Positions 20,500 through 61,900 of a stretch of 64,000 nt of DNA are shown one piece after another. The stretch's first letter is position 1, and the number at the start of each line of letters is the position of its first letter. Origin of the DNA: Loripinus fragilis. Lineage: Eukaryota; Mollusca; Bivalvia; Lucinida; Lucinidae. A program made the position numbers and the translations under genes. The stretch spans positions 83,648,279 through 83,712,278 of the forward strand of contig OZ026525.1 in the NCBI GenBank assembly GCA_964019695.1. Direction: 5' to 3'. Below the pieces are notes generated by a model. The model was not told the origin of the DNA, searched no databases, and saw only the letters and a program-made list of their open reading frames with translations.

Positions 20500-22290
20500 T
20501 CGCACTGTCCGTCCGTCCGTCTGTCCGTCTGCCCGTCCCACTTCATGCCCAGTGCATATCTCTTATATTCTTTGAGGTAGGAATTCCAAATTTGGTGTGT
20601 GTATGCATCTTGGGGTGATGGAGTGTCGCGTACCATTTTCGGGTCACTGTGACCTTGACCTCTGACTTAGTTTTTAGAATAATCGTGTCCGGAGCATATC
20701 TCTTATATTATTTGAGTTAGGAATCTCAAATTTGGTGTGTGAATGCGTCTTGGGATGATAAATTGTCGCGTAACATAATTTGGTCACTGTGACCTTGAAA
20801 CTGACCTCTGACCTAGTTTCTAAAAACTGCATTGAGTCTGGTGCATATCTCCTACATTCTACGAGATAGGAATTCCATATTTGGTGTGTAAAAGCATCTT
20901 GGGATGGCGGAGTGTCACTAACCATTTTCGGGTCACTGTGACCTTCACCTTAAACTCTGACCTAGTTATCAGAATAATCGTGTCCGGAGCATATCTCTAA
21001 AAATATTTGAGCTAGGAATCTCAAATTTGGTGTGAGGATTCATCTTAAGATGACAAAGTGTTGCATACCATAATTGGGTTACTTTGACCTTGAACTTGAC
21101 CTATGACCTAGTTTTTAGAATTATCGTGTCCGGAGCATATCTCTTATATTATTTGAGGTAGGAATCTCAAATTTGGTGTGTGAATGCATCTTGAGATGGG
21201 AAAGTGTTGCATATCATAATATGGTCACTGTGACCTTGAACTTGACCTCTGACCTAATTTCTAGAAACTGCATTGTGTCTGGTGCATATCTCCTATATTG
21301 TTTTAGATAAGAATTCCAAATTTGGTGTCTAAATGCATCTTTAGATGACGGAGTGTCACACATACCATTTCGGGTCACTGTGACCTTGACCTCTGACCTA
21401 GTTTTAAGAATTTTTGTGTTCGGAGCATATCTCTTATATTCTTTGAGGTAGGAATTCCAAATTTGGTGTGTATATGCATCTTGGGATGGTGGAGTCTCAC
21501 ATATTATTTTCTGGGCACTGTGACCTTGACCTCTGACCTAGTTTTAATAATAATTGTGTCAGAAACATATCTCTTATATTATTTGAGAAGGGAATCCAAA
21601 ATTCGGTGTGTGAATGCATCTTGGGATGGTTGAGTGTCTTGTACCATTTACGGGTCACTGTGACCTTGACCTCTGACCTAGTTTTAATAATAATTGTTTT
21701 AGGAGCATATCTCTTTTATTATTTGAGATAGGTATCCCAAATTTGGTGTGTGAATGCATCTTGGGATGGTGGAGTGTCTTGTACCATGTACAAGTCACTG
21801 TGACCTTGACCTTTGGCCTAGTGTTTAGAAAAATCATGTCCAGAGCATGTCTCTTATATTATTAAAGGTAGGAATCACAAATTTTGTGGGTGGATGCAAC
21901 TTTGGATGGTAGAGTGTCACATACAATTTTTGGGTCACTTTGACCTTGACCTCTGACCTAGTTTGTAGAATAATCGTGTCCAGAACATATCTCTTATATT
22001 ATTTGAGATGGGAATCCCAAATTTGCATTATGGATACATCTTTAGATGCTGATGTGTTGCGTACCATTTTTAGGTCACTGTGATCTTGACCTATGACCTA
22101 GTTTCTAGAATAATCGTGTTTGGAGCATATCTCCTATATTATTTGATGTAGGAATCCCAAATTTGGTATTGATTCCTCTTGGGATGGCGGAGTGGTGCGT
22201 ACCATTTTGGGTCACTTTGACCTTGACATTGACTTCTGGCCTCATTTCTAGGTTTTATCGTGTCTGGAGCATATCTCCTATATTACAGCT
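20500..22290. repeat. Satellite (about 145 bp x12) with nuclear-receptor half-sites
   Basis: About twelve diverged units carry 'ggtcactgtgaccttgac', 'ctgacctagtt', 'gagcatatctc' and 'aaatttggtgtgtga'. On the opposite strand the central block reads AGGTCAGAGGTCAAGGTCA, three copies of the nuclear-receptor half-site AGGTCA. There is no coding capacity. Confidence 0.85.
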
Positions 22291-31742: not shown

Positions 31743-31813
31743 GCGCACAGTGAATCGATACTGTGAATTGTGCACCGAACCCTTTCGTTCCATTTCGGTG
31801 AGTATCAAGAAAA
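31743..31813 (+). promoter_or_regulatory. Inferred VPS33A 5' leader/promoter region
   Basis: Only about 70 bp separate the nested transposon from the start codon, and about 25 of those still match the outer element. No TATA box is evident. The core promoter must therefore lie in or overlap transposon-derived DNA, unless an upstream untranslated exon exists. Confidence 0.35.
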
Positions 31814-31924
31814 ATGGCCGCTTCCAGTGGTCATCTCGGAAGCGGAAAAATAAATTTAGGTTTTTTAAGAGATTACTACAGACGAGAGCTTCTCGAATGC
31901 CTAGACAAATGTCATGGAACCAAG
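31814..31924 (+). CDS. VPS33A: VPS33A exon 1 (codons 1-37)
   Basis: Starts at the ATG in 'aaaaatggccgc' and ends in an [19 protein letters not shown] segment that matches the family N terminus (RREL..FLDKC). The donor is AAG|GTTATT, a weak consensus. It is chosen because splicing here joins TK to ALVWDD of exon 2 as in relatives. The frame stays open to 32,062, but the extra residues have no family similarity. Confidence 0.85.
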
Positions 31925-37900: not shown

Positions 37901-40900
37901 AGACATGCATGAAATTATTCTAGTTAATGACTTGAGATATAATTATTGTAAGCTCTCTCAGCCTCATGTAATGCACACCAATTTAGAAACATTATATTTC
38001 ATAAGCATCGACAATTTTACAGAGTCAGATTCTGAGAGCTTAATAGTTTTTAAAATGTAAGAACAAATTGAAAAAAGTAACTTTAGTAACTTACCATTCA
38101 CATCTCGTACAAAATATGAAACCTGTGCAAATTGCACAGGTTTCATATTTTGTACATGCCGGGCCGCGTAGCGCAGTAGGTAACGTGTCTGGCTACAGAT
38201 GCGTGTCTGACTGCAGATCCAGGGGTCGCGAGTTCGATCCCGGTCCGGTCCCATACTTTCGTGGAGATTGATCATGAAATGATTTCTACGGTCATTCTCC
38301 TCCCTTCCGCTGATTCATTCAAGAAGGGTTGTTGTCAGTTACAAGCGAAAGTATGTGCACGAATTACTGGTTAACCGCTTGTTCAAGCCTGCCCAGGAAA
38401 AAGTGCGGTTAGGTGAAATGACCGTCCCGCAATGACCATAGCTGTTGACTTGGGACGTAAAGCAACAAAACCAACCAAAAATATTTTGTACATTTCACAT
38501 GGTTATATCCCTTAAAGGATGACCCTATGACCTTGACTGGTTATATTTCAGGCTCTAGTGTGGGATGATGCTCTGACTGGGCCATTTGGGTTGATTGCTG
38601 AATATTCTCTTCTTAAGGTAGGTAATTGAAACCTTATACACATGGGCTCCTCACCGGCATCACTGTGTTGTGGTCCTTGAGCAAGACACATTTATCCTAG
38701 CTTAGTACTGGTTCAACCCTGGTCACCCAGGAAGACCCGTCCCTGTTTAACTGAAAGATTGTTGATTGGACGTAAATATTCAAATCAAACACATGGGCCC
38801 AGATATGTAACCTTTTTCATGCTCAACTCATATGAGCATGAAAACTGTTATCTTCATAAATGTCAAAGTACACGTACAAACAAATGAGATATTTTTCTTC
38901 TTTTTTTGCTCAGAACTGAGGACCATGTCTTTTGTTGCAGCCATAAATTTTAAAATGCCAATTGTTGGCATTTTAAAATTCATGACAGAAATAAATTTCA
39001 AGCTCAAGTGAGATAAGCCTGAAAAAAGTTTCATATCCATGGAGCCTGACTATTTAATGCAATGAATAGCTAGTCTGATTGATGGTCTATTAGTCTAACT
39101 TCAATGTATTGGGAAATGTGTCATGAGTTTGAGCCCCAGTCTGTTCATGTACATGTATAATTGAACTTTTTGATTACTGTAAAGGCGGCACGCCATGAAT
39201 GCGTAAATAGGACTGGTCTACTTGAGACATGGGGAAAGCTGAAAATGAGGTGTGTTTTTATTCGAAAGTAACTGTATCATTGTACCATAACACCTTAGTA
39301 AAGACAGTAATTATTTAAACTTTAAAACACCAGCAAAATAACTACATTTGAAAGTGTCTGTTTATTGTTTAACATAAGTATAGATGCAAACAGTGTGGAC
39401 CCAAAGAGGCTTCAAAATGTTACAGCAGACAACAAAAACATACGACTTTTTGTGATATGCGTTTAAAGGGTTAATACATGTGAGGTCAGTGTATATACGG
39501 TCAGGACTTTCATGAAATGCATGCACGTTTGTGCTGCCCAAAAAGCTTATTAACTTTTTTACAAATTATAAATAAAACCTGATTTCCCTTCCTTAGCAGA
39601 TGTAATAGCCAAACCAAGCCCAGATATGAATATTAAAGTTGCTGCCTTTACTGTAAGCGAAAAGTCTATTAATACTTTTGTAGAGATTATTCTGATCCAA
39701 GTAAGGTAGCTACTGATGCAAGAATGTATTATTACTATTATATACACTTAATATTACAGGCACATTTAAAAAGATTAGTAAAAATAGTGTTGTTGAAAAC
39801 GATATTATAACCCAGACCAACAGAAATGTAATCTTTATACACATTTTTTAAAATATGAAAGTAACCCCATTGTGATAGGATGTCCGTTACAACACTGCAA
39901 ATTTTCTTGTAAATAAACAAGATTTGAAGGCGATAAAATCACATTTAAAAGGTCATATGATAAACAGAATCTTACACTTGTGATCATTTCATATGAAATG
40001 ATCACTTGTGTCTGAGCCTCTATATATTTTAATGTCAAACAAGAGTTGCTGATTGATAAATTGTGAAATATTGTTCAAAAGAGAAAATACTTTTTTCCTA
40101 ATATTCACATTCAAGAAAGCAAAGTGTTCAATGCAAATAGAGGAGATTCAATATGTTACAAGGTTCTGTGATCTCCATGGTCCCTCAGCAATCTACAGTG
40201 AAGTCCCTTTATAATGCTATATTTGGGGTTCATAGGAAAGGACCATGTTATAGACTAATTGTATTATAAAGGGAACGAATAACAGGAAAACTAACATTTA
40301 ATGGCCATTTTCCTTTAATTCTATTGTAAAACTCAACTGTAATAAAAATTTGGAACCACAACATGACCATGCTATATCCAAATCAGTGTTATAATGAGGT
40401 GTTTAAGCCTTTGTGGAACCAAAACCCCCCTAAACGGGTCCTTTGGCAAACAGTGAAGACCCTGAGGAAATGCCACATAATGTGGCATTTCATCAGGGTC
40501 TGCACTGTTTGCTAAAACAAAATCGATCTTCAGAGAAATGAATACAATATTTATTTGGAAATTATGACCTGTGACCCCTCAATATATACAATGGACCATC
40601 CCAAGTGTTTTGTATAAAACCAGGAGGAAGAATACATGGGTGCACAAAGGGTTAATAAAGGGACATACTGCACTAGTATCGAGTAAGACGTATTTATCTG
40701 CATAATAATTCTTTCTCCACAGGAGCATGATGTTGAGAAGATGTTCCCCCTTAGGGCTCAGCCCCTGCCACCTAGCAATGTACAAAATGTTATATTTGTC
40801 ACAAGACCGAAGCTGGACCTGATGGATCAGATTGCCCAGAACCTACTCAAGTAAGTTGTAAAATGAGTCGTGACATGTGATTTCCAACAATGTGGCATTT

Positions 40901-43900
40901 TGACAAGTGTAGACTCAAACGAGCCTGTGCAGCCTACTTTTAAGCTTAGAAACTCCAACTGGTGTTCGGTCAGAAGCTTAACACTCATAGAATATTCAAG
41001 CAACTAGCAAAGGCTCTGATCAGACTGTGCGTATGCACAGGCTGATCTGAGGCTTTGCTGGTTGCACATACCACATTGTTGGAAATCTTATGTCACGGCT
41101 CAAAATGTAGACAGGCAGTGGCAAGGTTTCACTCTTTAACTACTAGTATCATCTGCTAATAACCTTTGCAAACAGTTTGGACCCAGATCAGGCCGGACAA
41201 AATGTAGGGCCTAATCTGGATTTACCTACTAGTATTGTCCGCTGATAACCTTTGCAAACAGTTTGGACCCAGATCAGGCCCGACAAAACGTCAGGCCTAA
41301 TCTGGATCCAAACTGTTTGACATTATGATTGTATTTCTGAAATATTTTTTCACATACATGTCCATCTCAATAAGAATAGATACCCTGCTTTAAGGTCATA
41401 TGCTACTAAATACTTCCCACATTGAAATCTCTTCAATACTTTCCATACAGTTTGTTTTATGCATGGACTGTCAATTTATGAAATAAAAAGGATATGTGAC
41501 TGTGCTCAATTTTTCATAATCGCATGTGCAAGTTTTTAGCCTTTGATCAATTTTCTGAACAAATTAAAGAATAACCTAAGTTCTAAACATCAAGCTAAAA
41601 TAGCAGTAATATTCACCTAGCTTCTTTATTTTAATTATTGCTTATGGCCTCAAGCCTTCTAGCAATTTTAAAAATGTATTTGTAATACCAAGCCATGACA
41701 AGATACTGCATGATGTATTTTGGTAATTCGCCAAAACGTTAGATTTGTTTTTTGAGTGATTATATATTAAAAAATCTGACATTGATAATCTTAATATTTT
41801 GCTTTTATGCCATGGACTATCATAATACCTTTTAGAATTTTTTTTCAAAATGGGGGTCATCGTACTAATTATCTTTCAGGAGCGCCAAATTTACCCCCAC
41901 CCCACAGATTTTGTGCATAATTCAATATAAAACGTAAATGAGTGGACATATTTGTCATTTATATAATTCCTTATTATTTGTATGAAGTAAATCTGCATAA
42001 AAAGCTAAAAAAGAAAAACACTGTAATTTATGTGCCCACCCAGGAACTGACCCCAGTCCACCCGTTCCCCAGTCTGAGACGCTAACCACTAGGCTAGGAG
42101 GGCAAGTTGTTTGCGGCTCGTAATAATCATACATCAAGAATAGATAAATTATTTCTGCCTTAACCGACGCAGAAATGATGCGCATGGGATTTACCAACAT
42201 ATGTCTTTAAGGTCAAGGCCAAAGAAGGAGGTCAAAGGTCACATATACAGAATTTGTGACTACAGATTTTCTGTCAGCTCCATACCTCGTGAGCCCATTG
42301 TCAGATTGTGAAAATAGTTCACAAACATGCTCACCTTATTAGGGCAATGTGCAGAACCAAGGTTTCAGACAACCTGCTTCAAGGTCATAGTGAGAGGTCA
42401 AAGCAAATGATTTAGATCTCCATGCCTCCTGAAACCCTGCGCCAATTCATAAAACATTTCACAAACATATCCACCTCTATGAGGCGACATGCAAAACAAA
42501 GGTTTCTGACTCTGTTTCAAGGTCAAGGTCATAGCGTAAGGTCACATGAACATACATGTAGTTTGTGACCACTCCATATGAGCTGTGACATGAGATTTCC
42601 AACAATGTGTTGTGTGCGACTTGCAAAGCCTCAGATCAGCCTGTGCATACGCGCAGTCTGATCAGAGCCTTTGCTAGTCCCTTGCGTATTTTATGAGTGT
42701 TGAGCTACTGACTGAACATCATCTGGAGATTCTAAGCTTATAAGGAGACGACACAGGCTCGTCTGAGTCTACACTTGTCAAAATACCACATTGTTGGTAA
42801 TCACATGTCACGGCTCATATCTCCTGTCTGATTTTGAACCCTTAAAGCGCCAATCGCAACAAAAGTCGTCTGCTTTTCTCGTCTGCTGAAATGTTTAGGA
42901 AGCCTCTTTTACAAATAGTGTGGACCCAGATCAGACTGCTCCTATAGGAGCAGTCTGATCTGGGTCCACCCTGTTTGCTTCTATACTTGAATAAGTCAGT
43001 AATGTTAGGCAATTATTTGCAGCAGACGACTTCAGGAGACGACATTTTCAGATGCATCTTTTGCTTGGTGCTTAAAAGGTTAAAATATTTCATACATGTC
43101 CACCTCAACTAGATGATGTACAGAGTGAAGGTTTCATACACCTTGCTTCAAGGTCTAAGGGAGATGTCAGAGGTCACATGATGTACAGACTTTGTCTGCT
43201 CCATATCCCATGAACCCCTTCTCTGAATTCAAAAAGTATTTTGCGCATATGTCTAGTGCAATAAGACAATATGCTCAGTCTTTCCAACTATCAGGTAACA
43301 TTCATTGGAGGAGGTCAAAGGTTTCACATACAGAATGGGAGTATGCTTGATAGTACATGTACTTGTCTTTTAATTGACCAGTACAGTTGCTGTTCAGGGA
43401 TATCAAATAAGCAATGCATTAAACTTTTTCATTTTCATTGTAACTGAAACTCATTTAAAAGCTATTTTTAACTGTTGATCTTGAGTTAATCCATGCAAGC
43501 CTAGTGTCTTTTTTGTGAAACATACACAAACAATAGAGACCCAGATCAGACGTGTAAAATGCAGCATCTGATCAGGGTCTCCACTGTTTGCTTACAAAAT
43601 GTTCAACTAAAATTTTGATGAAATGAAAAATATGACTCGGCAACCCTTAAAAAGAAACTGACTGGTCCAATTGATAAGAGTGGGAAATTCCAATTGGCTC
43701 AAATGTGTTCATAACAGTTGAGTCTATTTGTTTACAGGGAGGACCAGAAGGGAGGATTCAGGAAGGAATATCATATCATATTTGTGCCCAGAAAGAGTCT
43801 GTTATGTGAGAAAAAGTTAAAGGTATTATTATCACTTGACCCTTTGTAGACTAGAAACCCCTAAAAGGGTACTTTGGCAAACAGTGAAGACCCAGATGAA

Positions 43901-46900
43901 ATGCAGCATCTACAGGCCTAGGGTATCTTAAAACGGGGACCTTTTTTCAAATTGCAATAATCCCTTTATAAAATGTTAAAACCTTTTGATTTTTTTTTGT
44001 GGCTGTAGCAAAGTGATATCCTTTCCTCTGATGATGTTTCACCACCAGATGGCAATTCAAGAAGAAGTGACATCATGATGCCATCATAATGTAATCATGA
44101 CATCATTTATTTGTTGTCTGCATGTTTGCTGTTGTTAAAATGACTTCCAGTGAAAATTCCCTCATGTCAGAGCATTCTCAGGCTTACATATTTAGGAAAC
44201 AAGAAAAATGGAAATTCTTTATAAATCAAAGAACTGGTCCAGGTGATAAAATGGTCTGTTTGTGGTGAAACTGGAGAATTAAGCTGCAGAAAGGGAAGTG
44301 GTAGGCCAATAAATCTGTATTTATGGTCAAACAATAAGAAAATTTTCACAATTAATTTTAAGTATATACACCCGTAGTCCCTTTTCTCGACCTTTGAAAT
44401 TGGATAATAAGAAGGTATTTTACTGGCCTTTCCAAGGCGGTACTTCTTTTGTGGATCTTTTATGTTTTTGTTCTGTCTTGTGTTTGCTATGTCTTTGTAC
44501 GCATCTGTTTATATGTGCTTTGTGGTCACCTGCTGGGAAAGGGCTGACCTCTTGGCTCTCGTTTGTGGTGTCTAACTGTGAGTTTGTCACTTTCCCATTG
44601 GTATCCTGGGTCAGGTGTGGTACTTGATTGTATTGATTCCTGATCTTTGCACCCTTACTTACTTTTCTTAGTTGGTAAACAAACTAATAATGAGTGCAAC
44701 TGTAGAACCCTGTTGGCATCCATAAAGCTGCAAAAATAATGGTGAAAAAACAAGCCGGCTGCCTTGTGATTTTTCTACAACAAGTAAAATACAATGTTCA
44801 AAATTGTCTTATTGCTGGTATCCGTTTTACAAGTAGATATACCTTTCTGTACAATTTAGCAGTGGAAAACCAGATACACTCAAAAAATCCCTTCAAGAAT
44901 GAGCTGACAACATGCTATAAACTTACAGTAAATGTTCTAAAATTGTGAACAATATAAATTGCCTGCCCAAATCCCTATACAAACAGTGCAGACCCAGACC
45001 TGAAGAAGCAGTCTGGTCAGGGTCTTCCCTGTTTGCTATTCTGGAAGCAGTCTGGTCAGGGTCTCCTCTGTTTGCTATTCTGACAAGCATTTTGTGGATT
45101 CCAGCCCTGAGATTCAAACAATTTATTTGAGAACAGAAAGCGAAAAGTGTTCGAAATTTTAGAACATTTACCAGGCCCCCAGATAAGAGTGCATAACTGA
45201 AAATTATTTTTTTTATTTCTCATCCAAAACATATGTTGTGGTTGCTCAAAAGAACCGTCTCGATGAGACGGTTCTTTTGAGCACCCAAAACACGTGTTTA
45301 AACTTATAATTAAGAAAGTAATCACAATTATATGCTAATTTTTTTTAGCTTAACTGGCCCTATGATATACTGAAATGTACATGATAGTAAATTGTTGTCT
45401 TTTCTGCTACAATCGTAGGAAATGTAGGACATATGAAACTACAAAATGCACCCTTTTCATATTCTGAACATTTTGTGTGGTTGTACACCTAAGTGACATT
45501 TGATTTCGGTCCATTTATCTTGTGTTTTGCTTTTGTCCAACATTCCATTATTTATAATATGTATGTTTCCTCATGGGCTTTATAGCCTTTTGGACTTTTT
45601 AAATAAACCGATCTTATCATTTTCAGGAAGCCGGAGTTCATGGATCGCTGACAAATATTGAGGAGTTTAGTTTGACCCTGATACCATTTGACAGTGATAT
45701 TTTATCTATGGAGATAGAGAATTCATTTAGGGTAAGACTACAGTATTTAGCTATGAGGCAGGGTTTTATGCTTAAAAAGTTGCCAGAAATCTGTATCTGT
45801 ACACTATCTGCATTACAAAACAAACATAGATACCATTTTCTACTTCATTATGTGCACATATAAGCACACATTGAGTACAATAAGTGTTCCAGTATAATTT
45901 AGATCACTAGTTGCCTGCCAAAAAGGTCTAGACAAACTGTAACAATGATGGGTTAACATTTTCATATTTGACCACATCAACAAGGAGCTCGCTTTTCTCT
46001 GACAAAGCAGATGAAAATTGTTCTCTTTGATTTAAAGTGTGTCTGTGGGGGGAGGGGGTGAAATTTGAAGTTTCAGAAGAAGGAAAACTGTTCCTTTTAG
46101 ATAATCTGATGGCTATTTCAGTGCAGTCCCTTTATGACACTATTTTTGGGGTCCATAGAAATGGACCATGTTATAAGTGAATTGTGCTAAAAAGGGACAA
46201 TTTTACAAAAGAATTATAGGAAAATGACCATTCCATGGTCATTTTCTTATAATTCCTTTGTAAAATTTCTTGGTAAAAGTATTTGGCAGTCACAACATGA
46301 CAGTGTTTTATCCAAATCTGCGTTTTAATGTGGTGTGTAATAAAGGGACTGCACTTTACCTTCTTTAAATATTTGTTATACAGTCATTTATGTTGTAGGG
46401 AGCGCAGTTGCTCAGTGGTAGAGTGCTTGACTCGAGACCTTGGGACGGCGGGTTTGAGCCTCACCATCGTCACTGCATTGTGTTCTTGAACAAGACACAT
46501 TAATCCTAGCTTAGTACTGGTACAACCCAGGAAGACCCGTCCCTACATAACTGATAGATTGTTGATTGGACGTAAAGAATCAAATCAAACAAACACAATC
46601 ATTAATGTTGTTTTATAGGAATGTTACCTGGAGAATGACAACACCACTATGTTCTATGCAGCCCAGTCACTAGTCATGTTACAGACACTGTATGGAATCA
46701 TCCCCAACATCCACGGGAAAGGAGAATGTGCAAAGGTTGGTGGTTGGACATTACTTAAAACAGGCCTCCAGATCTAGATAAGAGTGCATACAGGAAGATA
46801 ATTTTCTTATTTCTCAACCAAAACATATGTTGTGGGTGCTCAAAAGAACCGTCTCAATGAGACGGTTCTTTTGAGCACCCAAAACACATGTTTAAATTGA

Positions 46901-49900
46901 TGGGTAAGGAAATAAAAGCAATTTTAGGTGCACAAACTGTCTTTATCTGGACCTTAGACTGGTTCCAGTCCTTAAAACAATTTTATATCAATGTGTCATA
47001 TCATATGTGTAGCCAGTCTAACTCTGGTGGCTCTGTTTTTAAAACAGAGCCATCAGAGTTAGACTGGCTACAAGTATATGATATGACACATTGATGAAAA
47101 ATTGTTTTAAGGACTGGAGCCAGTCTATCTGGACCTATGTTAAAATGTATGGTTGATCACTGGCTAAATCAAATGACAAATATAAGATTCAATCACGGGG
47201 TTTTAGATGCTAAGGCTGGCTTTGGCCCGAGGCTGATTTTAACGCACAACGCGAGAGCGCATAATTATTTACCATGGTTGACATCAAATGTTGATCACTG
47301 AATACTCTTGGTTGATTGTTATTCTTACACACTATTCCTTTGCTTATTTTCACTTAATCATTTTTCTCATCCTTATATAGAGACAAGAGAATTGTTACTT
47401 GTTTAAAATCAGCATGTGCGTTTAGTGTTCGCTCATGTCAGTAAAAGGGAAACTTTGCTTAGCTGTCTCCAGATTCCTCAAGTTAGACTGGAAAGGCAGT
47501 TGCTGATTGCTATATCTACTGCTCTCAGCGGGGCTTTTGTGTAAAAAAAGTTGTGTAAAACATCTGGCCTCAAGTTTTTAAAACATTTTTCATGCTTAAC
47601 TCAATTGAGCATGAAATGTAAACTCATAAAAACTAACATGCTGAAAATAAAGTCTTATCATGATTTCAAACTCTCAGATGTTGTATGTATCATGCTAATA
47701 AATGTTAAAATGCCAACAATTGTTGGCATTTTAACATAAATGAGCATGATAAAGTTCATGCTCAGCTCAGTTGTGCATGAAAAACGTTTTATAACCTACA
47801 GTCCTTGCTATAGAAAAAATTTTCTGACCAAGAATTATTTGTCATGAGAAATGCCATGTTAATATCTAAAGTCTTGTATTGTCTCATTAGAAATGTAATC
47901 TGGGCCTGGACACGAGAAAACCTGTCTTCTGGTTTGCGAACAACAAAGGCTCAGACCAGCCTGCGTATCCCCGCAGACTGATCAGCGCCTTTGTTATTCA
48001 CTTTTTTGTAAGTATCACATGTAAACTTGCTACAAGCGAAATTTCAATTTTCTAGCTAGTCTCTGTAGCTGAGGTGACTGGTTTGAACCTTCATTTATCA
48101 GAAACACTGAAGACAGGTTTTGTCGCGTTGAGGCCCATATTTTAAGCAATAATAACCTAAGCTTATGGCACTATAAATTTTTTGGGGCTGCCATAGTGAC
48201 AAAGCATGGACCACTTGATTGATATATTGACATGAGCTATAGACCCTAGCCTGAGGGCTGCCCATAAACCGCAGAAGTGCAGGAAATTTAGGTTCCTATT
48301 ACTTGTAGTGCATTGGAAAATGCTCAATTTTAGAATTTGATACTAATATTTTTGCAGCATGTAGTTGACATGATGTTACACATATTTCTTTGCAGCATGT
48401 AGTTGACATGATCTTACACATATTTGTTTGTAGCATGTAGTTGACATGATGTTACACATGCGTCGAGAGTTGGAAGGCCAGGAACCCCAGATAACACCAC
48501 AGATTGACAATCTATTTATACTAGACAGAACTGTTGATATGCTCACACCCATGTTGACACAATTAACATACGAGGGCCTTATTGATGAGACATTTGGAAT
48601 AAATAACAGTAAGTTGATATACTAAAGAGCCTCAGTGCTCCAGATAAGGTCAATGATTTATTTGAGGTTTCTGGTGACATGAAATTTTGTTGGAAAATAT
48701 TTTATTATTTTATCAACCTAGAAAGTTGAAGAGATACCATTTTGGCATTGTAAAGTTATGTAATGACGGTCATAATAAAATAGGACATTTATGGCCAAAT
48801 TTTGAGATTTGCACGCCAAAATCATGATTACAAAGTTTTTTTTAGAGTAGTATGATAAAAAGAATCTAACATTCATGCTCCTGAATTTTATATTGAATTT
48901 ATTAAACTCATTGTGAAAAAGAGATAAATGCTCTGCAAGCTCCACATTTTATCTCTTTTCCTTAGCTCATTTAATAAATTCAATAATATATGAGCACTTA
49001 TTTATTTTCAGCATCAGCAAAAATGCCCCCAGAGAAGTTTGTGGCCAACAAGGACCGGGATATGGGCCCTTCTGAACCCTTGGAACCAAAGACCCTGATC
49101 CTGAACTCAGCTGATGAGCTGTACTCAGAGTTAAGAGACAAGAACTTCAGTGCTGTTGGTCAGGCTGTCAGTAGGAAGGCAAAGATTATAACAGCTCAGT
49201 TTGATGTAAGTTCAACTCTTGCATGTTAGATAATTTAGCATTTTTTTTTGTGGTTTGTTGATTTTATTCAGAATTATCTTTTTTTTAACAAAATACTTAA
49301 AGAACACAAGACCTTTGCAAGCCAGGCTGCCAAGTTCACTTGTGTCATAAATTACGTATTTCTTAGTGACATATTTATTCTCCACATATTTTGTTTAAGA
49401 AATAGATTCACTCTGGCAGTGATTTGTTGCTTGATATGTCACTTGCTAAAAGTTGATTAATCACGAGCGTGAAGCCCAGTGATTTATACACTTACCACTG
49501 ACTGACAGGTAAAAGTGCATAGTTTAAAATTTATTTCTCAACCAGGGAAAAAGACTAACAGGGGCCCAGTAGCCCAGTGCCCCTAAATTTTGGCCTGGGC
49601 CCCTAAAACTAAATGTTTAGGGGCCCAGCTTGTCCCTGAAAAAAGGACAGTACGTAAAGGTATGAAGTCTTGTCAAATCTGACACTAGCTGTTGGAAGTT
49701 TACAAATTTTCATTCAGCTGGTTCCAAACACTGTTAATATGGTAAATAATTAATATGAATGCAGAGTATAAGGATCTCTGACTACAATTATGAGTAAAGC
49801 GAATCCTGGGCCCCTTAGTTTTGGGCTGGGCCCCCAATCATTTTGTTTTAGGGGCCCAGCTTGCTCCTGTCGAAAACAGGTTAGTCTGTTTCCCTGTTAA

Positions 49901-52900
49901 CCAAAATATATGTTGTGGGTACTCAAAAGAACCATCTAATTGAGACAAATTCTTTTGAGCTTCCAAAACACAAGTTTAAACTGATGGGTAAGAAAATAAT
50001 TATGATTATGATTTTACGCTCCAAAAAGTTTGCTCATCAGGACCTAAGATGAATGATCTTTGGATATATGGCAGTATCTTATTGTTACAGGAAAGACATG
50101 CTGCCAAGACAGTAGGAGATATGAAACAGTTTGTTACTAAGCTGCCTCACTTACAGCAGGCCAGAACATCACTAGCCACATGTGTATATATATGGCAGTA
50201 TCTTATTGTTACAGGAAAGACATGCTGCCAAGACAGTAGGAGATATGAAACAGTTTGTTACTAAGCTGCCTCACTTACAGCAAACCAGAACATCACTAGC
50301 CACACATGTATATATGGCAGTATCTTATTGTTACAGGAAAGACATGCTGCTAAGACAGTAGGAGATATGAAACAGTTTGTTACTAAGCTGCCTCACTTAC
50401 AGCAAACCAGAACATCACTAGCCACACATGTATATATGGCAGTATCTTATTGTTACAGGAAAGACATGCTGCTAAGACAGTAGGAGATATGAAACAGTTT
50501 GTTACTAAGCTGCCTCACTTACAGCAGGCCAGAACATCACTAGCCACACATGTATATATGGCAGTATTTTATCATTACAGGAAAGACATGCTGCCAAGAC
50601 AGTAGGAGATATGAAACAGTTTGTTACTAAGCTGCCTCACTTACAGCAGGCCAGAACATCACTAGCCACACACATATATATATATGGCAGTATCTTATCA
50701 TTACAGGAAAGACATGCTGCCAAGACAGTAGGAGATATGAAACAGTTTGTTACTAAGCTGCCTCACTTACAGCAGGCCAGAACATCACTAGCCACACATG
50801 TATATATATGGCAGTATCTTATTGTTACAGGAAAGACATGCTGCCAAGACAGTAGGAGATATGAAACAGTTTGTTACTAAGCTGCCTCACTTACAGCAGG
50901 CCAGAACATCACTAGCCACACACATATATATATATGGCAGTATCTTATTGTTACAGGAAAGACATGCTGCCAAGACAGTAGGAGATATGAAACAGTTTGT
51001 TACTAAGCTGCCTCACTTACAGCAGGCCAGAACATCACTAGCCACACATGTATATATATGGCAGTATCTTATCATTACAGGAAAGACATGCTGCCAAGAC
51101 AGTAGGAGATATGAAACAGTTTGTTACTAAGCTGCCTCACTTACAGCAGGCCAGAACATCACTAGCCACACACATATATATATATGGCAGTATCTTATCA
51201 TTACAGGAAAGACATGCTGCCAAGACAGTAGGAGATATGTAACAGTTTGTAACTAATCTGCCTCACTTACAGCAGGCCAGAACATCACTAGCCACACATG
51301 TATATATGGCAGTATTTTATCATTACAGGAAAGACACGCTGCCAAGACAGTAGGAGATATGAAACAGTTTGTTACTAAGCTGCCTCACTTACAGCAAACC
51401 AGAACATCACTAGCCACACATGTATATATGGCAGTATCTTATCATTACAGGAAAGACACGCTGCCAAGACAGTAGGAGATATGAAACAGTTTGTTACTAA
51501 GCTGCCTCACTTACAGCAGGCCAGAACATCACTAGCCACACACATATATATATATGGCAGTATCTTATCATTACAGGAAAGACATGCTGCCAAGACAGTA
51601 GGAGATATGTAACAGTTTGTAACTAATCTGCCTCACTTACAGCAGGCCAGAACATCACTAGCCACACATGTATATATGGCAGTATCTTATCATTACAGGA
51701 AAGACATGCTGCCAAGACAGTAGGAGATATGTAACAGTTTGTTACTAAGCTGCCTCACTTACAGCAGGCCAGAACATCACTAGCCACACATGTATATATG
51801 GCAGTATTTTATCATTACAGGAAAGACACGCTGCCAAGACAGTAGGAGATATGAAACAGTTTGTTACTAAGCTGCCTCACTTACAGCAGGCCAGAACATC
51901 ACTAGCCACACACATATATATATATGGCAGTATCTTATCATTACAGGAAAGACATGCTGCCAAGACAGTAGGAGATATGTAACAGTTTGTAACTAATCTG
52001 CCTCACTTACAGCAGGCCAGAACATCACTAGCCACACATGTATATATGGCAGTATCTTATCATTACAGGAAAGACATGCTGCCAAGACAGTAGGAGATAT
52101 GTAACAGTTTGTAACTAATCTGCCTCACTTACAGCAAACCAGAACATCACTAGCCACACATGTATATATGGCAGTATCTTATCATTACAGGAAAGACATG
52201 CTGCCAAGACAGTAGGAGATATGAAACAGTTTGTTACTAAGCTGCCTCACTTACAGCAAACCAGAACATCACTAGCCACACATGTATATATGGCAGTATC
52301 TTATTGTTACAGGAAAGACATGCTGCCAAGACAGTAGGAGATATGTAACAGTTTGTAACTAATCTGCCTCACTTACAGCAGGCCAGAACATCACTAGCCA
52401 CACATGTATATATGGCAGTATCTTATCATTACAGGAAAGACACGCTGCCAAGACAGTAGGAGATATGTAACAGTTTGTTACTAAGCTGCCTCACTTACAG
52501 CAGGCCAGAACATCACTAGCCACACATGTATATATGGCAGTATTTTATCATTACAGGAAAGACACGCTGCCAAGACAGTAGGAGATATGAAACAGTTTGT
52601 TACTAAGCTGCCTCACTTACAGCAGGCCAGAACATCACAAGCCACACATGTATATATGGCAGTATCTTATCATTACAGGAAAGACACGCTGCCAAGACAG
52701 TAGGAGATATGAAACAGTTTGTTACTAAGCTGCCTCACTTACAGCAGGCCAGAACATCACTAGCCACACATGTATATATGGCAGTATCTTATCATTACAG
52801 GAAAGACACGCTTCCAAGACAGTAGGAGATATGAAACAGTTTGTTACTAAGCTGCCTCACTTACAGCAGGCCAGAACATCACTAGCCACACATGTATATA

Positions 52901-55900
52901 TGGCAGTATCTTATCATTACAGGAAAGACATGCTGCCAAGACAGTAGGAGATATGAAACAGTTTGTTACTAAGCTGCCTCACTTACAGCAGGCCAGAACA
53001 TCACTAGCCACACATGTATATATGGCAGTATTTTATCATTACAGGAAAGACACGCTGCCAAGACAGTAGGAGATATGTAACAGTTTGTTACTAAGCTGCC
53101 TCACTTACAGCAGGCCAGAACATCACTAGCCACACATGTATATATGGCAGTATCTTATCATTACAGGAAAGACATGCTGCCAAGACAGTAGGAGATATGA
53201 AACAGTTTGTTACTAAGCTGCCTCACTTACAGCAGGCCAGAACATCACTAGCCACACACACATATATATATGGCAGTATCTTAACATTACAGGAAAGACA
53301 TGCTGCCAAGACAGTAGGAGATATGTAACAGTTTGTTACTAAGCTGCCTCACTTACAGCAGGCCAGAACATCACTAGCCACACACATATATATATATATG
53401 GCAGTATCTTATCATTACAGGAAAGACATGCTGCTAAGACAGTAGGAGATATGTAACAGTTTGTTACTAAGCTGCCTCACTTACAGCAGGCCAGAACATC
53501 ACTAGCCACACATGTATATATGGCAGTATTTTATCATTACAGGAAAGACATGCTGCTAAGACAGTAGGAGATATGAAACAGTTTGTTACTAAGCTGCCTC
53601 ACTTACAGCAAACCAGAACATCACTAGCCACACATGTATATATGGCAGTATCTTATTGTTACAGGAAAGACATGCTGCCAAGACAGTAGGAGATATGAAA
53701 CAGTTTGTTACTAAGCTGCCTCACTTACAACAGGCCAGAACATCACTAGCCACACGTAAGTCTTGCTCAAATGTTATACATCTTTCTTCATGCTCAACTC
53801 AACTGAGCATGAACTTTATTTTGCTCATAAATGTTAAAATGCCAACAATTTTTGGCATTTGAACATTTATTAGCATGACAAATATAACATCTGAGTGTTT
53901 GCAAGCAAGAAAAGTATTTATTTTTTAGCATTTTAGTTTTTATGAGGGTAAATTTCATTCTCAGTTGTGCATGAAATATTTTATACCTCTGGGCCTTGAT
54001 TCAATAGCTCAACTATTCTTATGCTGTTAAAATGACAGTTATATTTTCATGCATTCTACTTGTATATACTTCGACAGGTAAGCTTCACTTTGTAATGAGA
54101 TTATCTATTTCTGACTATTGGCTGGCCCCATTCGTAAAATTGTACCAGGGAGTGCCAATTTTGAAATTTTGGGAAAAAAACCCTTTGGCTGTGTTTTTGA
54201 CTAAATGAGAAGTGCCCTTATCTCCCCTGTGATCTGACCACAGAAGGAGACAGACTATTCCAGTGTGAAATAGTTCAAGAAAAAAAGAAATTCTTTATGG
54301 CATCACTGTATGTCTGTAATCTACACTATTGAGCACTATGTGATGACCTGGTAGTTTTCAAACTGTGAGCAAGGGTCAAGTACTTGTCTTTTTCAATAGA
54401 CAAAGTAATACAATGAATCTTGTGAAATAGAAGCAGCGAGGACTGATCCCTACAATTAGAGCGTAGGCTCCTCATTTTCATAATACAGTATACAGATAAC
54501 ATTGTTATTAAATCCATAGAAGCAGTATTTTCACTTGGCATTATGTCCCCTCACCAACATATTGTTTTTGGTGCCAATCCCATCAGTGACAGTATGACTC
54601 TTGTGGGCAAGGTATCTCGTGAACTAGTCGGCAGATTGGAACCAAATTTGCATGGATACAACATTGGGGAATGATTAAGACTTGATAAGGTTTTGGAGAT
54701 CTTGGCCTGAATTTTCAAGGTCACAGCAGAGCAAATAGGTCACTTTTTTAAAAGTATTTGTGGAGACATCTGTTTTCTCAGAATACAATACTAGTTAGCA
54801 TTGGTTTGTAAACAATAACCATAGAGAGGATCATACATGAGTGGTTGTTTCATATGTAATTTATGGAAACAAGCTTTAGCATAACATTTGAAATGACTAC
54901 TTTTTATATGTCCCTCTTTTCAATGAAAACCCTCTTTTCAAAAATTCCTCACCGAATTTTAGTGTTTTAGTTACATTTTAGAAACATCTGTGGCAGGCTG
55001 TTCAAGATGGCAAATGATGCCAATGAGTATATGCTGATAACTTTTGCAAACAATTTGGACCCAGATCAGGACAGACAAAATGTCAGTCCTGATCTGGATC
55101 CAAACGGTTTGACACTCTGTTATTATTAGCTAATATCCTGTGAGGTTTAAATAGCATGAAATGCTCTATTTTTTTTATTCAATCTATTCAACTTGTGTAC
55201 AGCATTCCATGTATAAGCATGTAAATTAGGTGTACACATGACCAATACTGTTTTGTTTTTGTATAAATCATTAGGATAGACTAGAAACTAATTGAGCGTG
55301 GATCTGGGAAAAGGGTCCTTAAGGCATTTCAACAACTATTACATAAGAGACATTTGAAAAACAACTAATATCACAAAATTCACAATCCTTTATATTACCA
55401 CAAAAATGTTTCTATGGCTTGATGTCACCAAAGTATCAAACGTTTCTGCCTATATTTAAAGTTACGTATGAGTGATGTTGCCATGGCAACAATGAGACCA
55501 TAACACCTACAAGCACCCAAAATGAAGGATGGGTCACTTTTATTGCATATAAAACGACTTGGAAACTATATTTTCATAAAATTTCATTTGCATTTACATT
55601 GTAACATAGATATTGCTTGTGCATACATTATATTTGTTATGTGTTTATACTGAGCCAAACATAACCAACAAGCAACTAGAGAATAGCACTTTGACATCAT
55701 AGTAGGGTTAACACTCTTCTTAATTTCACGTTTCAAGCCTGATTACATATGTCGCTTCTAACATCAATATATACATCAATATTAAAGACAATTGCTTAAA
55801 ATTTTCAGCAAAACGCCAGAAAGAGGTAGTACTTTACAAACTTAATATTAGCTAGATTTTGACTATCACAACCATAAGGTACCTTTTGTCATATCCAGGC

Positions 55901-58900
55901 CCAATTGTATAGTTTATGTCTAATAAAATTCTGTTCTGTTCTGTTCTATTAGTACTTGTGCTTTTGTAACTACCGGCCTTTGATCCTATACTGGCCAATA
56001 TTGTACATTTGAGTTTATGCTGATAATCTTTGCAAACAGTTAGAACCAGATAAGGACTGACAGCACTTGTAGGCTCATCCAATGAGGTATTTATAGCATG
56101 AAATGTTGTATTGGTACTTGCCTTGCTGTAACTACCGGTTTATGATTCTATGTACATTTCAGACACATCTGTAGCAGAGCTAATCAAGGAGGCAACTGAC
56201 GCCGACGAGTTTATGGACTCTCTGAGATGTCAACAAGGTAGGTACATGTGAAATGCTTATTGAAACTATTGGCATGCTGGGTATTTTCACATAATGTTGT
56301 TATTGCAGATTTGTATGCCCCTTGTATCTTATGTTGTCGTATTAATTTTGGTCAATGTGTGTGTGTGTGTGGGTATCCCAATTGAACATTGGCCATAACA
56401 TGCAAGAAATGTTACTCCCCATTTCTTCATGTTTGAATTATCTCCATGGAATGAACTTAAAAGGGGAAACCTTGTATACTAATAACTTTCATACCCTATA
56501 ATATCAAGGGTAACAACCTACGTCATAGCATTGATGTTTTAAACACGTAGTGCGGCGCCATCTTTGATTTACAAGGTCAGTTTTCCCCTTCGTAAAATTA
56601 AACAAATGAGTGTCTGTACAAACAAAGCAGTGCAGGCGGTGCCTAACATCACACTTGAACAGAATATATAACGGCCACGCCCCGATATGCCGTTGCCTTT
56701 GTAATCATTCACCCACAAGAATCGAAGCGGGAGACACGAGTATAATTTTAGCAGTCACCCACTTCGATTTTTGTGGGTGAATGTTTACAAAGGCAACGGC
56801 ATTTCTGGACGTGACCATTGTATATTCTGTTCAAGTGTGATGTTAGGCACCGCCTGCACTGCTTAGTTTTGACAGACACTAATTTGTACGACATTTACGA
56901 AGGGAAAAACTAACCTTGCAAATCAAAGATGGCGTCATACTACATGTTTGCAACACCCACGCTATGACGTAGGTTGTTACCCCTGAATATATTTTGGTGA
57001 TATTTGGAAGGAATATATATCATGTCAAGTGCAAGAATGGTTGCTCTCCCTTTCAATTTCAGTTTTCTCACATGTACAAATTTTTAAGGCAACCACTTTC
57101 ATACCTTTTGAGATTCTTTAATGATATTTGGTAGGAGTATATTTTAGTTGAAGATGGATCTTCTTGTGCTAGAAATGTTGCCTACATGTACGGGTCCAAC
57201 CATAAACACAGGACTGTTCTGTTGTAGCCTGATTCTATGTTTTCAGATTTCTTTAAAGGGGAGGAGACAGACAAGGTCAGTCCATACATAGAGGACTGTA
57301 TAGGAAGACAAGAACCTTTATTGAAGGTGAGATTTTAACCAACTGCTAAAAGCGTTAATGCCGTGTCAGATCTAGAGGAGGTTCAGGGTGTTGAACCTCC
57401 CTCCCCCCGTTTTTAAATATCCTATGAAAATTAAATAATTTGGTCTCAGTGAGACCAAATTATTTCATTTTCAAGGGATATTTAAGAAAAATTACATAAA
57501 ATCAGCAAAGCATACCCCCCACACCTTTATACTTATGAACCCCCTTTCCAGAAGCCTTGGATCCGCCCCTGTGCTGCTTTATGTCCCATTTAACATTTTT
57601 TTACATTTTATCAGGATGTTTCCTGGACTGAACCAGTAGTAAACAGAAGATAAAGTGTTTTGTAATATGACTGGAGAGAATCCTGTCTCCTGATTGGCCC
57701 AATTTGTCTTCATAAATCTCTATGTCTACCTGGAAACTGGTCTGGACCGGTCCACAAGTTAATATTGCATGAAAACCAGCTCGAACTAGTTTCGAGAAGT
57801 TAATATTTTTGACACTTCTGCAATATTACCCTCTAGAGAGCTAAAAGCATGATGAGTGTGAAACTAGCATGTGCTGCATGAAATTGAAATTGACATGATT
57901 TGCTGTTTCACCTCCCAACAGGTAAATTAAAGACTTTCATGAATTTTTACAACAGTTTTGTTTTGTTTTCTTTGCTTATTTATCTTTGTTTGAATAAACA
58001 AACTGTAAAAGCCATTTTATGCTAACATTTTATATTCCCCATTAAGAGAATTAATATACATTTGAAAATGCAAAATACTAAATTATAATACTTTGATAAA
58101 AGTTGCTAAAACTTGTGAGAAAGTCCTTAGATGTCTTTAACAATAAAAGTGAAAGTAGCAAAATTTTCATTCTAAAATGAAAAGTCATATAACAAAACAG
58201 TTATTGACTTCAATTTCGGTAGACATAAGGATTTATCTATCCTTAAAAGTGATATTCACCGAGGCCTAACGGCCTCGGTGAATTATCACTTTTTCAGGTA
58301 GATAAATCCTTATGTCTACCTAAATTGAAGTCAATAATTGTATATTGCTGAAGGACAAAGCAGTGATATTATGAGCAAAGTGGCGTGTTCGATCCTGGCC
58401 CAGTGCCATACTTTTGTGGAGATTGGTCATGAAATAATTTCTACCGTCATTCTCCTCCTTCTGCTGATTCAAGAAGAGCTGTTGTCAGTTACAAGCAAAA
58501 ATATGTGCACAAAGTAATGGTTAACCACTTAGTCAGTCAGGGAGCACAGTGGCTCAGTGGTAGAGTGCTTGACTTGAGACCGAAGGGCCGCGGGTTCCAG
58601 CCTCACCGGCGTCACTGCGTTGTGGTCCTTGAGCAAGACACATTTATCCTAGCCTAGTACTGGTTCAACCCGGGAAGACCCGTCTCTAAATAACTGAAAA
58701 ATTGTTGATGGGACGTAAAGAATTAAATAAAAAAAAAACTTAGTCAGTCAAGCATGCCCAGGAAAAAAGTGTGGTTGGGTGAACATGACTTTAGCTGTTG
58801 ACTGGGATGTAAAACCTCAAAAGTGGTAGTTTAAAAATTAAAATTTTGTGAAATGACAGCCATTCAGTTACATGTATATACAATTTGCTATATATAGGAA

Positions 58901-61900
58901 CAGGACAAGAACCTTAATACTGACTGACAGCTTAGCACAATGTAGAGGCAAATACATTGGATACAATACTTGATTTGGTGTAATTGACAAAATAATCTGG
59001 AATTAAAGAGGTGAACAGAACTTACAACCAGCAACAGTTAGGGTGACTCTATATTGAAAGATCAACATGTTGAGGATAATTCTCATGAGTCCCCCTGTTT
59101 TATGAACAGAGATAGATCTTTTTATGTACAATGAAATGGGCCGCAATTCGAATAAACCTATTTAAGGGGTTTCCGACAAAGTGAGATTCAGCTACAGAGA
59201 CTAGCTTGAAAGTTGAAATTTCGCTCGTAGCAAGTCTAGATACGATACTTCGCAATAAGCGAATAACAAAGGTGCTAATCAGACTGTACGGATGCACAGG
59301 CTGGTCTGCACCTTTGTTGTTCGCAAACTGCAGAAGACCAGTTTTCTTGCATAGATGCCCAAATTATATCTTAAGAATTTGATTATACTCTGTTCTTCCT
59401 TCAGTCTCAATGTTCTCTTGTAGGTTTTACGTCTTATATGTACCCAGTCCTACTGCAATAACGGTCTAAAACCAAAAGTGCTGGAGCATTATAAGAGAGA
59501 AATCACACAGACCTATGGTTTCCAACATATTATCACCCTAACAAACCTAGAGAAAGCTGGTCTACTGCGACCACACATGGCCAGAAACTATCAGGTGATC
59601 AGAAAATCTCTGAGATTGACAGTGGAGGATGTGAATGAGCAGGTATGTCAGTGTTTGTGTTAATGTCGTACAGTACAACCTGTCTTAAGCGGCCACTCAC
59701 AAAGAAGACCAAAATTGGTTTTCAAGACCGATTATCGCTTTATGCAGGTCAAAAGTTTTGCAGAATGCTCCAAAAGAGCATTCTGCAATACTTTCGACCT
59801 TCATTAAGCTACCATTTGTCTTTAAGACCTATGTAAGGTCTATTTTTGAGTGACCGCTTAAGACAGGTTCTACTGTAATATTTACTTATTCGAAGCAAGC
59901 CTTTAATGAATCTTTAGATTTTTGCAACCGTTCATAGCCTCATGAATTACACAAATTTGATTGACAGCTGCCAAGCTCACTTGCCAGCGCAAATCGCTTC
60001 GAACATCGAACTCATTTGCTAGAGTTTACACTGGTGTTGTGATTGACAGCGAGCCACACCTGAGTTGCTTGTGCAAAACAAGCCTCTTGTTTGCTCCATT
60101 GGCTGTCCGTTTTCACGCTGGCTGTTCAGCTTTTCCGTTTTACACTCCAACAAACCGTTAATATGATTACCTATTAAATATAAAACTGTTTTTTTTCTAA
60201 ATTTAAATATTTTTGTATTTTAGATATTTATAATAAAATATAAATATAAGCAATAAATTCAATTTTTGGTCTGTTCATGGAATCATGAATACTTCGGGTC
60301 TCTTGCAAAGTTAACGTGAAGCCCTTTGGGCTTCACTTACTTTGCAAGAGACCCGAAGTATTCATGATTCCATTAACATTCCAAAAATTGAATTAATTTC
60401 TTAAATAATATCTAAATACGCTACGAAAATCGTTGTTATGCAAGATAGTCAAGCAGCTTGCATCCAAATAAAAGCAGTCAATTTTCAGGAGTTTAAGTCA
60501 GATATAAGACAGGTTAAATGGAATATATTTAAATAAATATGGTCAGTTAACTTTCTATTTCTTTTTCAATAGAATCCAAATGACATTTCGTATGTGTACA
60601 GTGGCTACGCACCATTGAGTGTACGACTAGCTCAGATTCTAGCACGGCCAGGCTGGAGAAGTATTACAGAAATACTGAATCTGCTGCCAGGACCAACATT
60701 TGACGAAGTTCAACAAATACCAGTGGCACTTAGAAAGAGAAGTAGGCTTTTATTTAGAATCATTTCATCAATTTGTTAACCCTTTCTCACCATTATTTTT
60801 TCCTGCAAATGTTTCCTGCAAGTGCACTTCAGACTAGATTCTTCAATGGAAGCAAATGATATGAACCCTGCTCAGACTGCTCCAAAGGGAGCAGTCTGAT
60901 CTGGCTGCATATTGTTAGCAATATTAGCAACCTAAGACCATAAACAGACAAGAGCAGCAGACAACAAGTGGTGAGCTAATAGGTACATTTTAACATTCTA
61001 AAGACAGGGAATATAATGGATTCTATCGTAGCTTGTTACCTAGATGATCATACACAACCCATTGTATGGTTTCCACTTTAATATTAGTGATTAACTCTTT
61101 GCATGCCGGTTCACTTTTCATATTTTTGTTGTCATCTGCTGACTACCAATTCCATGTTGCTTAATAAAAACTGTTGCAGCCTCTAAATACATGTCATCTG
61201 GAAAAAACATTTCTTCCCAAAGTGGAGAGAACCTACAAAATTTGAAATAGCAGACTTAGTTTCATTGACTCGAAGAGTCTGTTCATGATAATTAATGGAA
61301 ACCATACAAACACCTGATTATGAGCTGACTGTTTAATTTCTAGAAAGACAGAGAAAGGCTAACAAAATACTTTTTTAAAGCTTGTATATCCCATAATACA
61401 ACCTAGAGTAAACTACCTTGATTTTGACGATATGATTTTGATAGTTTCTAATCAAGTTTTTGTCGATATTTTCCCCCAAGATTGGAATTTTGTCATTTTT
61501 TTCTCTCCACAAATTTGGACTAGAGGCTTTTCTCTACAATACCTGGCCCCTAGGTTATTTCTCTCCACACATTTGGACTAGAGGCCTTTCTCTACAATAC
61601 CTGGCCCCTAGGTAATAAAACTTTTATGCTCTACTCTACTGAGTATAAAATATCAACTGCTCATTTTAAAAAAAAAGCTGAAAATATAGACTTTTCTTGC
61701 TTTTTTATCATGCTGATGAATGTTAAAATGCCAACAATTGTTGGCATTTTAACATTTATCAGCATGATAAATTCATTACTTGTCACTTGAGCATGAAAAA
61801 GTTATAGCCTGCGGAGAAGGGGGGCTTGGATAAAGCCCTGCATCTGTTCTTCTGGTCCCTGTTACACCTGTGTGAATGTTTTACAGGGAGTTCAGTGACA

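What the first reader, a model, noticed from the sequence alone, without database searches (positions are those of the whole stretch)
50064..53755. Exon 9 of VPS33A and its acceptor are repeated 30 times; only the last copy has a donor
Thirty units of 122-128 bp each contain intron 8's 3' end plus all 91 bp of a highly conserved exon. Only copy 30 ends in GTAAGT. Exon 8 therefore faces 30 near-identical acceptors, but exon definition should favour copy 30. In most units a GTATAT after 'cacacat' could act as a weak donor and would give a 93 bp phase-0 exon; adjacent copies are only 29 bp apart, too short for an intron, so such splicing would have to skip a unit. Units of 126 bp keep frame if unspliced. 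Ten copies carry TAA. A coding exon amplified this way in a core trafficking gene is, to my knowledge, not described.
Basis: partly seen in the sequence, partly recalled or inferred. Interest (0 to 1): 0.9.

Follow-up and report, generated by a model that had tools for sequence, protein, structure and literature searches.

The report
Exon copied thirty times, one works
In what is probably a clam genome, one exon of the trafficking gene VPS33A, together with the splice signal before it, stands about 30 times in a row; by sequence only the last copy can give the normal protein, and similar smaller repeats sit on exon edges of other genes in the same genome.

Summary
At 50064-53755 stand 30 units of 122-128 bp, each about 27 bp of the end of intron 8 plus all 91 bp of VPS33A exon 9. 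Only copy 30 is followed by GTAAGT; ten copies carry TAA. The other exons are open, and a search of the 1.99-Gb assembly found the exon nowhere else. Exon 8 joined to copy 30 gives a full VPS33A frame; joined to any of the other 29 acceptors and read on to the copy-30 donor, it gives a stop.

The claim that this is undescribed does not hold. Tandem repeats straddling intron-exon boundaries are known in amphioxus as "mirages", reported not to disturb splicing. This is a mirage in a probable bivalve, unusually long and with the whole exon in the unit.

It is not alone. Exon 7 of the same gene has a 3-copy acceptor repeat. Of 72 myosin exon matches examined, 4 have a tandem array over an edge; a kinase exon has a donor-side duplicate. 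Minisatellites cover 8.6% of 200 kb around myosin exons.

Best explanation: an unselected minisatellite that includes an exon, tolerated because exon definition picks the copy with a donor. No RNA or read evidence was available.

The parts
31814..62009 (+). VPS33A gene, exons 1-14 from the ATG (exon 15 lies outside the window at about L009:7790-7882)
   Evidence: tblastn with a recalled human VPS33A; exon borders set by hand at AG/GT, giving an open 579-aa product; exon 15; 82% identity to P0001 Mercenaria
49012..49205 (+). Exon 8, phase 0 end, donor GAT|GTAAGT: the single donor that faces 30 acceptors
50064..53755 (+). Mirage-type minisatellite: 30 units of [about 27 bp of intron 8 end + 91-bp exon 9]
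50091..50181 (+). Copy 1: keeps the original upstream intron 8 context; GTGTAT at +91 could be a very weak donor (score -1.2)
50215..53633 (+). Copies 2-29: acceptors without a good donor; 10 carry an in-frame TAA
53665..53755 (+). Copy 30: the presumed functional exon 9, acceptor TTGTTACAG, donor CAC|GTAAGT
   Evidence: only donor in the array with a positive score; only acceptor of 30 that leaves the frame open to the copy-30 donor and on
48351..48459 (+). Second, small acceptor-side repeat in the same gene: 38 bp x 2.9 over the intron 6/exon 7 acceptor (candidate acceptors before 48358, 48396, 48434; only the last continues into exon 7)
56163..56237 (+). Exon 10, phase 1 start, fits a 91-nt exon 9

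Best explanation
The array is a 'mirage'-type minisatellite. A segment made of about the last 27 bp of intron 8 and exon 9 was duplicated in tandem, with the break at the end of the exon, and grew to about 30 copies by unequal exchange or slippage. Because the unit lacks the donor, only the last copy has acceptor plus good donor, so it alone is exon 9. Copies 1-29 lie functionally inside intron 8 as acceptor-bearing pseudo-exons and are free to decay. Exon definition (U1 on the single GTAAGT pairing with the nearest acceptor upstream) joins exon 8 to copy 30. Occasional use of other acceptors would give mRNAs with premature stops. Inferred: duplication mechanism, exon definition, tolerance.
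For: Only copy 30 has a donor with positive score (3.97; next best -0.74; recalled approximate matrix). With read-through to the copy-30 donor, 29 of 29 other acceptors give a stop and only copy 30 stays open. The other exons are open, and P0001 finds no second VPS33A in the assembly (42 of 43 matches in this locus, the other a lone exon-1 copy). Exon columns are not detectably less variable than intron columns (11/91 vs 4/27, Fisher p 0.74), mean core identity is 96.8%, and units one or three apart are more alike than shuffled (p 0.004 and 0.0068; two apart p 0.38), as expected of tandem-repeat turnover. Same kind of repeat at VPS33A exon 7, 4 of 72 myosin exon matches and a kinase exon. Amphioxus precedents are reported to splice normally.
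Against: No RNA data: use of copy 30 is not shown. 13 of 30 copies, copy 30 included, still encode the identical peptide, which leaves room for some being used. Of copies 1-29, 28 have acceptors scoring 0.62 to 1.14 against 1.14 for copy 30 (one -1.45), and copy 1 is transcribed first. Exon edges lie in TRF arrays somewhat less often than the sampled sequence does (5 of 144 edges against 8.6% coverage, binomial p 0.025), so arrays on exons may not be wholly free of cost.
Confidence: 0.8

Rival explanations
1. Acceptor-decoy rheostat: the array competes with copy 30 for exon 8's donor, so that copy number sets the fraction of unproductive mRNA and thus VPS33A level.
For: Of 29 acceptors upstream of the productive one, 28 score 0.62 to 1.14 against its 1.14, and 29 of 29 give a stop when read through to the copy-30 donor.
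Against: No expression data; amphioxus mirages are reported not to disturb splicing (PMC3087553 section 16; PMC3902484 passage). No sign that the repeated acceptors are conserved more than the rest of the unit.
Confidence: 0.1
2. Cassette exons: the GT at +93 in 12 TAA-free copies (a 93-nt, phase-0 exon) lets whole copies be included by skipping units, lengthening the domain-3a hairpin by 31 aa per copy.
For: 12 of 30 copies have GT at +93 and no TAA; 93 nt keeps frame with copy 30; in the model of the Mercenaria protein the exon covers the turn between two long helices.
Against: The donor CAT|GTATAT scores -0.74. The peptide is single in 119 of the 120 listed homologues, the other lacking it. 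TAA stands in 10 of 30 copies.
Confidence: 0.03
3. Assembly artefact: one or few real copies inflated by the assembler.
For: No reads could be examined; long tandem arrays are error-prone (general knowledge).
Against: 23 distinct 118-bp core types with a three-unit pattern do not look like stutter of one copy; other boundary repeats occur in the same assembly. The exact number 30 may still be wrong or vary between animals.
Confidence: 0.05
4. Relic or pseudogene: the locus is a dead VPS33A copy and another gene works.
For: Ten TAA and a strange structure.
Against: The other exons are open with GT/AG borders; no other VPS33A found in the assembly apart from a lone exon-1 copy.
Confidence: 0.02

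Closest known systems
Amphioxus 'mirage' minisatellites (Adh3, globins BflGb6/BflGb9; troponin C, PGBD5)
   Same: Tandem minisatellite units spanning an intron-exon boundary; extra copies carry splice signals; the copy joined to the rest of the exon is the coding one; within-cluster homogenisation; found in several genes of one genome (PMC3087553 section 16; PMC3902484 passage).
   Different: Here a bivalve (inferred), about 30 units against 6 and 3 in the two BflGb6 haplotypes, and the unit holds the whole exon up to its last base, so that 30 acceptors face one good donor.
Tandem exon duplication / mutually exclusive exons
   Same: Repeated whole exons in one gene.
   Different: Those units carry both splice sites (general knowledge); here copies 1-29 lack a good donor and 10 of the 30 copies have TAA.
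Intron gain by tandem genomic duplication / human repeats at exon-intron boundaries
   Same: Tandem duplication that places extra splice signals in a gene (PMC2812944, passages; PMC4974935, listing and start of abstract only).
   Different: No new intron is needed here; the array only lengthens intron 8. The C19 myosin case (L036) looks nearer to intron gain or sliding (by eye).
Intronic VNTRs affecting splicing, e.g. ABCA7
   Same: Minisatellite inside an intron of a working gene (PMC5954066, listing and start of abstract only).
   Different: The part seen does not speak of a coding exon in the repeat unit; not read further.

Membership tests
Mirage minisatellite (amphioxus type) | Tandem repeat whose unit spans an intron-exon boundary | tested here: met
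   Unit = intron 8 end + exon 9
Mirage minisatellite (amphioxus type) | Only the copy joined to the gene's own exon and splice site is coding | tested here: met
   Only copy 30 gives an open frame with read-through to its donor; sequence level only, cassette use not excluded
Mirage minisatellite (amphioxus type) | Regular splicing of the mRNA in spite of the repeats | not testable with these tools
   No RNA data held
Mirage minisatellite (amphioxus type) | Concerted evolution inside the cluster, boundary units apart | tested here: inconclusive
   Lag-1 and lag-3 neighbours more alike than shuffled, lag-2 not. Copy 30 alone has A at exon position 66 and copy 1 alone T at 91, but their mean distance to the other units (4.38 each) lies inside the range of the rest (2.45-5.41)
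Mirage minisatellite (amphioxus type) | Length instability between haplotypes or in the soma | not testable with these tools
   One haplotype only
Mirage minisatellite (amphioxus type) | Occurs at several genes of the genome | tested here: met
   VPS33A exon 7; 4 of 72 myosin exon matches; a kinase exon
Mutually exclusive exon array | Each copy has acceptor and donor and an open frame | tested here: not met
   No donor of positive score in copies 1-29; 10 of 30 with TAA

The most novel reading that the evidence does not exclude
Mirage arrays are a recurrent feature of this bivalve genome, and the VPS33A array acts as a copy-number-dependent brake: each extra decoy acceptor diverts some pre-mRNA to stop-containing products, so natural length variation tunes expression of a core trafficking gene.
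Probability: 0.1. Interest if true: 0.8.

Novelty: new variant of a known kind. Interest (0 to 1): 0.6.

Why it matters
It takes mirage minisatellites from amphioxus to what is probably a bivalve and shows several in one genome, which suggests that animals rich in ~100-160-bp minisatellites carry such repeats on exon edges as a matter of course. The VPS33A case is also a natural experiment: one donor faces 30 acceptors, nearly all of like strength, over 3.6 kb, the first transcribed first and only the last followed by a good donor. Its cDNA would show directly whether exon definition or first-come pairing decides. It is also a practical trap for gene annotation.

Tried and rejected
Paralogue or second array elsewhere: not found (the first look of the search is lossy by its own statement). 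Protein-level evidence for extra exon-9 copies: none in the 120 listed homologues of 3082 found (119 single, P0027 lacks it). Selection on exon copies: exon columns not detectably less variable than leader columns, so no constraint could be shown. Branch-point motifs: candidate sites were listed, but no clear single site per unit emerged. Ideas of mine not established: that the first junction had a 2-bp TA microhomology and that CpG decay removed an original GT at the copies' ends. Pfam scan of three open frames that looked reverse-transcriptase-like by eye: 0 families for 3 of 3. Papers with VPS33A and bivalve: 0. Two searches for boundary repeats in molluscs or bivalves listed 4 and 3 papers, none a bivalve case by title and start of abstract (a cone-snail paper among them was not read). 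The original mirage paper (PMC117041) is not held.

Wider screen: 136 kinase matches (135 of 1075 candidates scored) and 74 myosin matches (65 of 266 candidates scored) were checked by eye for neighbours on the same profile positions; one pair each stood out (C5:1869496/1869703; C19:11382442/11383129). The kinase exon was fetched for that reason and is not part of any rate. The C19:1138 pair was not followed up as a pair; its two exons, both among the 72, showed no array over their edges. Of the 74 myosin matches 72 were examined for arrays over their edges (50, 22); two were not fetched (C3:54386743, C17:80924614). The 20 long stretches were picked to hold many matches. A fifth array (L029:6688-7075) lies 30 bp beyond an exon match and was not counted. 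By the 18-mer test with the same threshold two further edges pass without a TRF array (L039, L046), which would make 7 of 144 edges by that test; they are not counted. Match edges stand in for exon edges and can be off by some bases. With 5 of 100 edges binomial p was 0.28, with 5 of 144 it was 0.025; arrays are clustered, so both are rough.
Full report
OBSERVATION. Tandem Repeats Finder gives 50064-53755, period 122, 30.0 copies, 95% matches. A script finds 30 exon starts, 50091 to 53665, with AG before each, spaced 122 (19), 124 (3), 126 (6) and 128 (1) bp. Each unit is about 27 bp of the end of intron 8 and the 91-bp exon, with a short AT/AC-rich linker of variable length. Only copy 30 is followed by GTAAGT. 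There are 15 distinct 91-bp exon versions and 23 distinct 118-bp cores, with mean pairwise identity 96.8%. Ten copies carry TAA, and 13 of 30, copy 30 included, encode the identical 30-aa peptide.

GENE. The exon peptide hits human VPS33A structures (E 1.4e-8). Fourteen exons, borders set by hand at GT and AG, run from the ATG at 31814 to 62009 on the + strand and give an open 579-aa product; the last exon lies outside the window at about L009:7790-7882. The product is 82% identical to Mercenaria mercenaria VPS33A with 100% of the query covered, and the next seven hits are other bivalves; that the host is a bivalve is inferred from this. A model of the Mercenaria protein (best structural matches human Vps33A) places exon 9 (residues 329-358) at the end of one long helix, a turn and the start of the next. 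For C. [quoted passage not shown] That exon 9 is the tip of this hairpin is my mapping; proline 347, in exon 9, is invariant in the 42 proteins I aligned of the 120 listed.

SINGLE LOCUS. The window lies at G000:C14:83648279-83712278 of an assembly of 1,987,113,829 bases. The 91-bp exon matches 30 times, all in this array. Mercenaria VPS33A gives 43 matches, 42 of them in this locus (30 the exon-9 copies); the other is a lone exon-1 copy about 1.35 Mb away. So this appears to be the only VPS33A, with the tool's caveat that its first look is lossy.

WHAT THE ARRAY ALLOWS. With an approximate recalled donor matrix, CAC|GTAAGT at copy 30 scores 3.97 and the next best site in the array -0.74; 29 of the 30 acceptors score 0.62 to 1.14, one -1.45. 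If exon 8 were joined to acceptor k and the rest kept up to the copy-30 donor, 29 of 29 give a stop and only copy 30 stays open; skipping exon 9 also gives a stop. GT at +93 exists in 21 copies, 12 without TAA; those could in principle be 93-nt cassette exons. Copy 1 has a very weak GTGTAT at +91.

EVOLUTION OF THE ARRAY. Units one and three apart are more alike than shuffled ones (p 0.004 and 0.0068 in 5000 shuffles; two apart 0.38), and exon columns are not detectably less variable than intron columns (11/91 against 4/27, Fisher p 0.74). This fits unequal exchange or slippage without visible selection on single copies. Among the 120 listed homologues the exon-9 peptide is single in 119 and missing in one, so nothing in that list suggests repeated copies elsewhere.

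NOT ALONE. In the same gene a 38-bp repeat (2.9 copies, 48351-48459) covers the exon 7 acceptor; of 26 other exon edges tested, the ATG end of exon 1 counted, this was the only one with a repeat. I then took the 74 listed myosin-head matches of the own genome and examined 72 of them in fetched DNA (50, 22). Four have a TRF array over an edge, read by eye: L025, 4 x 109 bp on the acceptor side, only the last copy running on into the exon; L029, 4 x 98 bp on the donor side, only the first copy joined to the exon; L027, a whole exon with both splice sites about twice, the second copy with a TAG; L036, 2.4 x 124 bp, where the intron end resembles coding sequence. None of the 22 has one, though two edges there pass the 18-mer test. 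A kinase exon, noticed because its profile stretch appears twice within 320 bp, has a donor-side duplicate. Arrays with period of at least 30 bp cover 8.6% of the 200 kb sampled around myosin exons. Five of 144 edges lie in such arrays, somewhat less than that coverage (p 0.025; 5 of 100 gave p 0.28). No array of many whole-exon copies like that of VPS33A stands out among the 136 kinase and 74 myosin matches listed, which are only the best-scored part of those families.

WHAT IS KNOWN. [quoted passage not shown] BflGb9 on the 3' boundary of exon 2; Adh3 with 10-72-bp units. Adh3 data and globin RT-PCR are said to suggest that regular splicing is not disturbed, and length and somatic instability are reported (PMC3087553, section 16 read). 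PGBD5 and troponin C are named as further cases (PMC3902484, one passage). The VPS33A array has the same anatomy and logic. What differs is the host, the copy number, and that the unit takes in the whole exon. My searches (two searches showed only 15 of 42 and 10 of 937 papers) listed no bivalve case by title and start of abstract; most subscription papers are not held.

MECHANISM. Inferred: tandem growth by exchange or slippage; copy 30 chosen by exon definition; copies 1-29 intronic and decaying. A brake on expression and cassette use are not excluded. No RNA, no reads and no second haplotype were available; the number 30 is that of one assembly.

Noticed in passing
48351-48459: 38-bp x 2.9 repeat over the intron 6/exon 7 acceptor of VPS33A; only the last of three acceptors continues into exon 7.
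   Followed up: yes
L014:3130-3386 (G000:C14 ~82.327 Mb) against window 31783-32037: VPS33A exon 1 with flanks has a 98.8% identical copy on the other strand about 1.35 Mb away, near pieces matching intron 1 (35462-36516).
   Followed up: partly
L029:9225-9620; L025:3915-4350; L036:6386-6688; L027:8481-8786: Myosin genes with tandem repeats over exon edges; in L036 the intron end looks like duplicated coding sequence, a possible intron gain or shift.
   Followed up: partly
L059:364-530 (G000:C5:~1869.6 kb): Kinase exon with a duplicated 3' end and a second GGTAAGT about 160 bp downstream.
   Followed up: partly
G000:C19:11382442-11383248: Two myosin matches 687 bp apart on the same profile stretch: a tandem exon pair, perhaps alternative exons.
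   Followed up: no
26053-27164 and 12106-12663: Open frames that by eye resemble reverse transcriptase; Pfam gave 0 families for 3 of 3 pieces.
   Followed up: partly
20543-22227: Upstream of VPS33A, a 140-bp x 11.8 minisatellite, not examined for genes.
   Followed up: no
P0027 (Mya arenaria, database protein): A VPS33A-like prediction that lacks the exon-9 stretch and repeats its C-terminal part: probably a faulty gene model.
   Followed up: no
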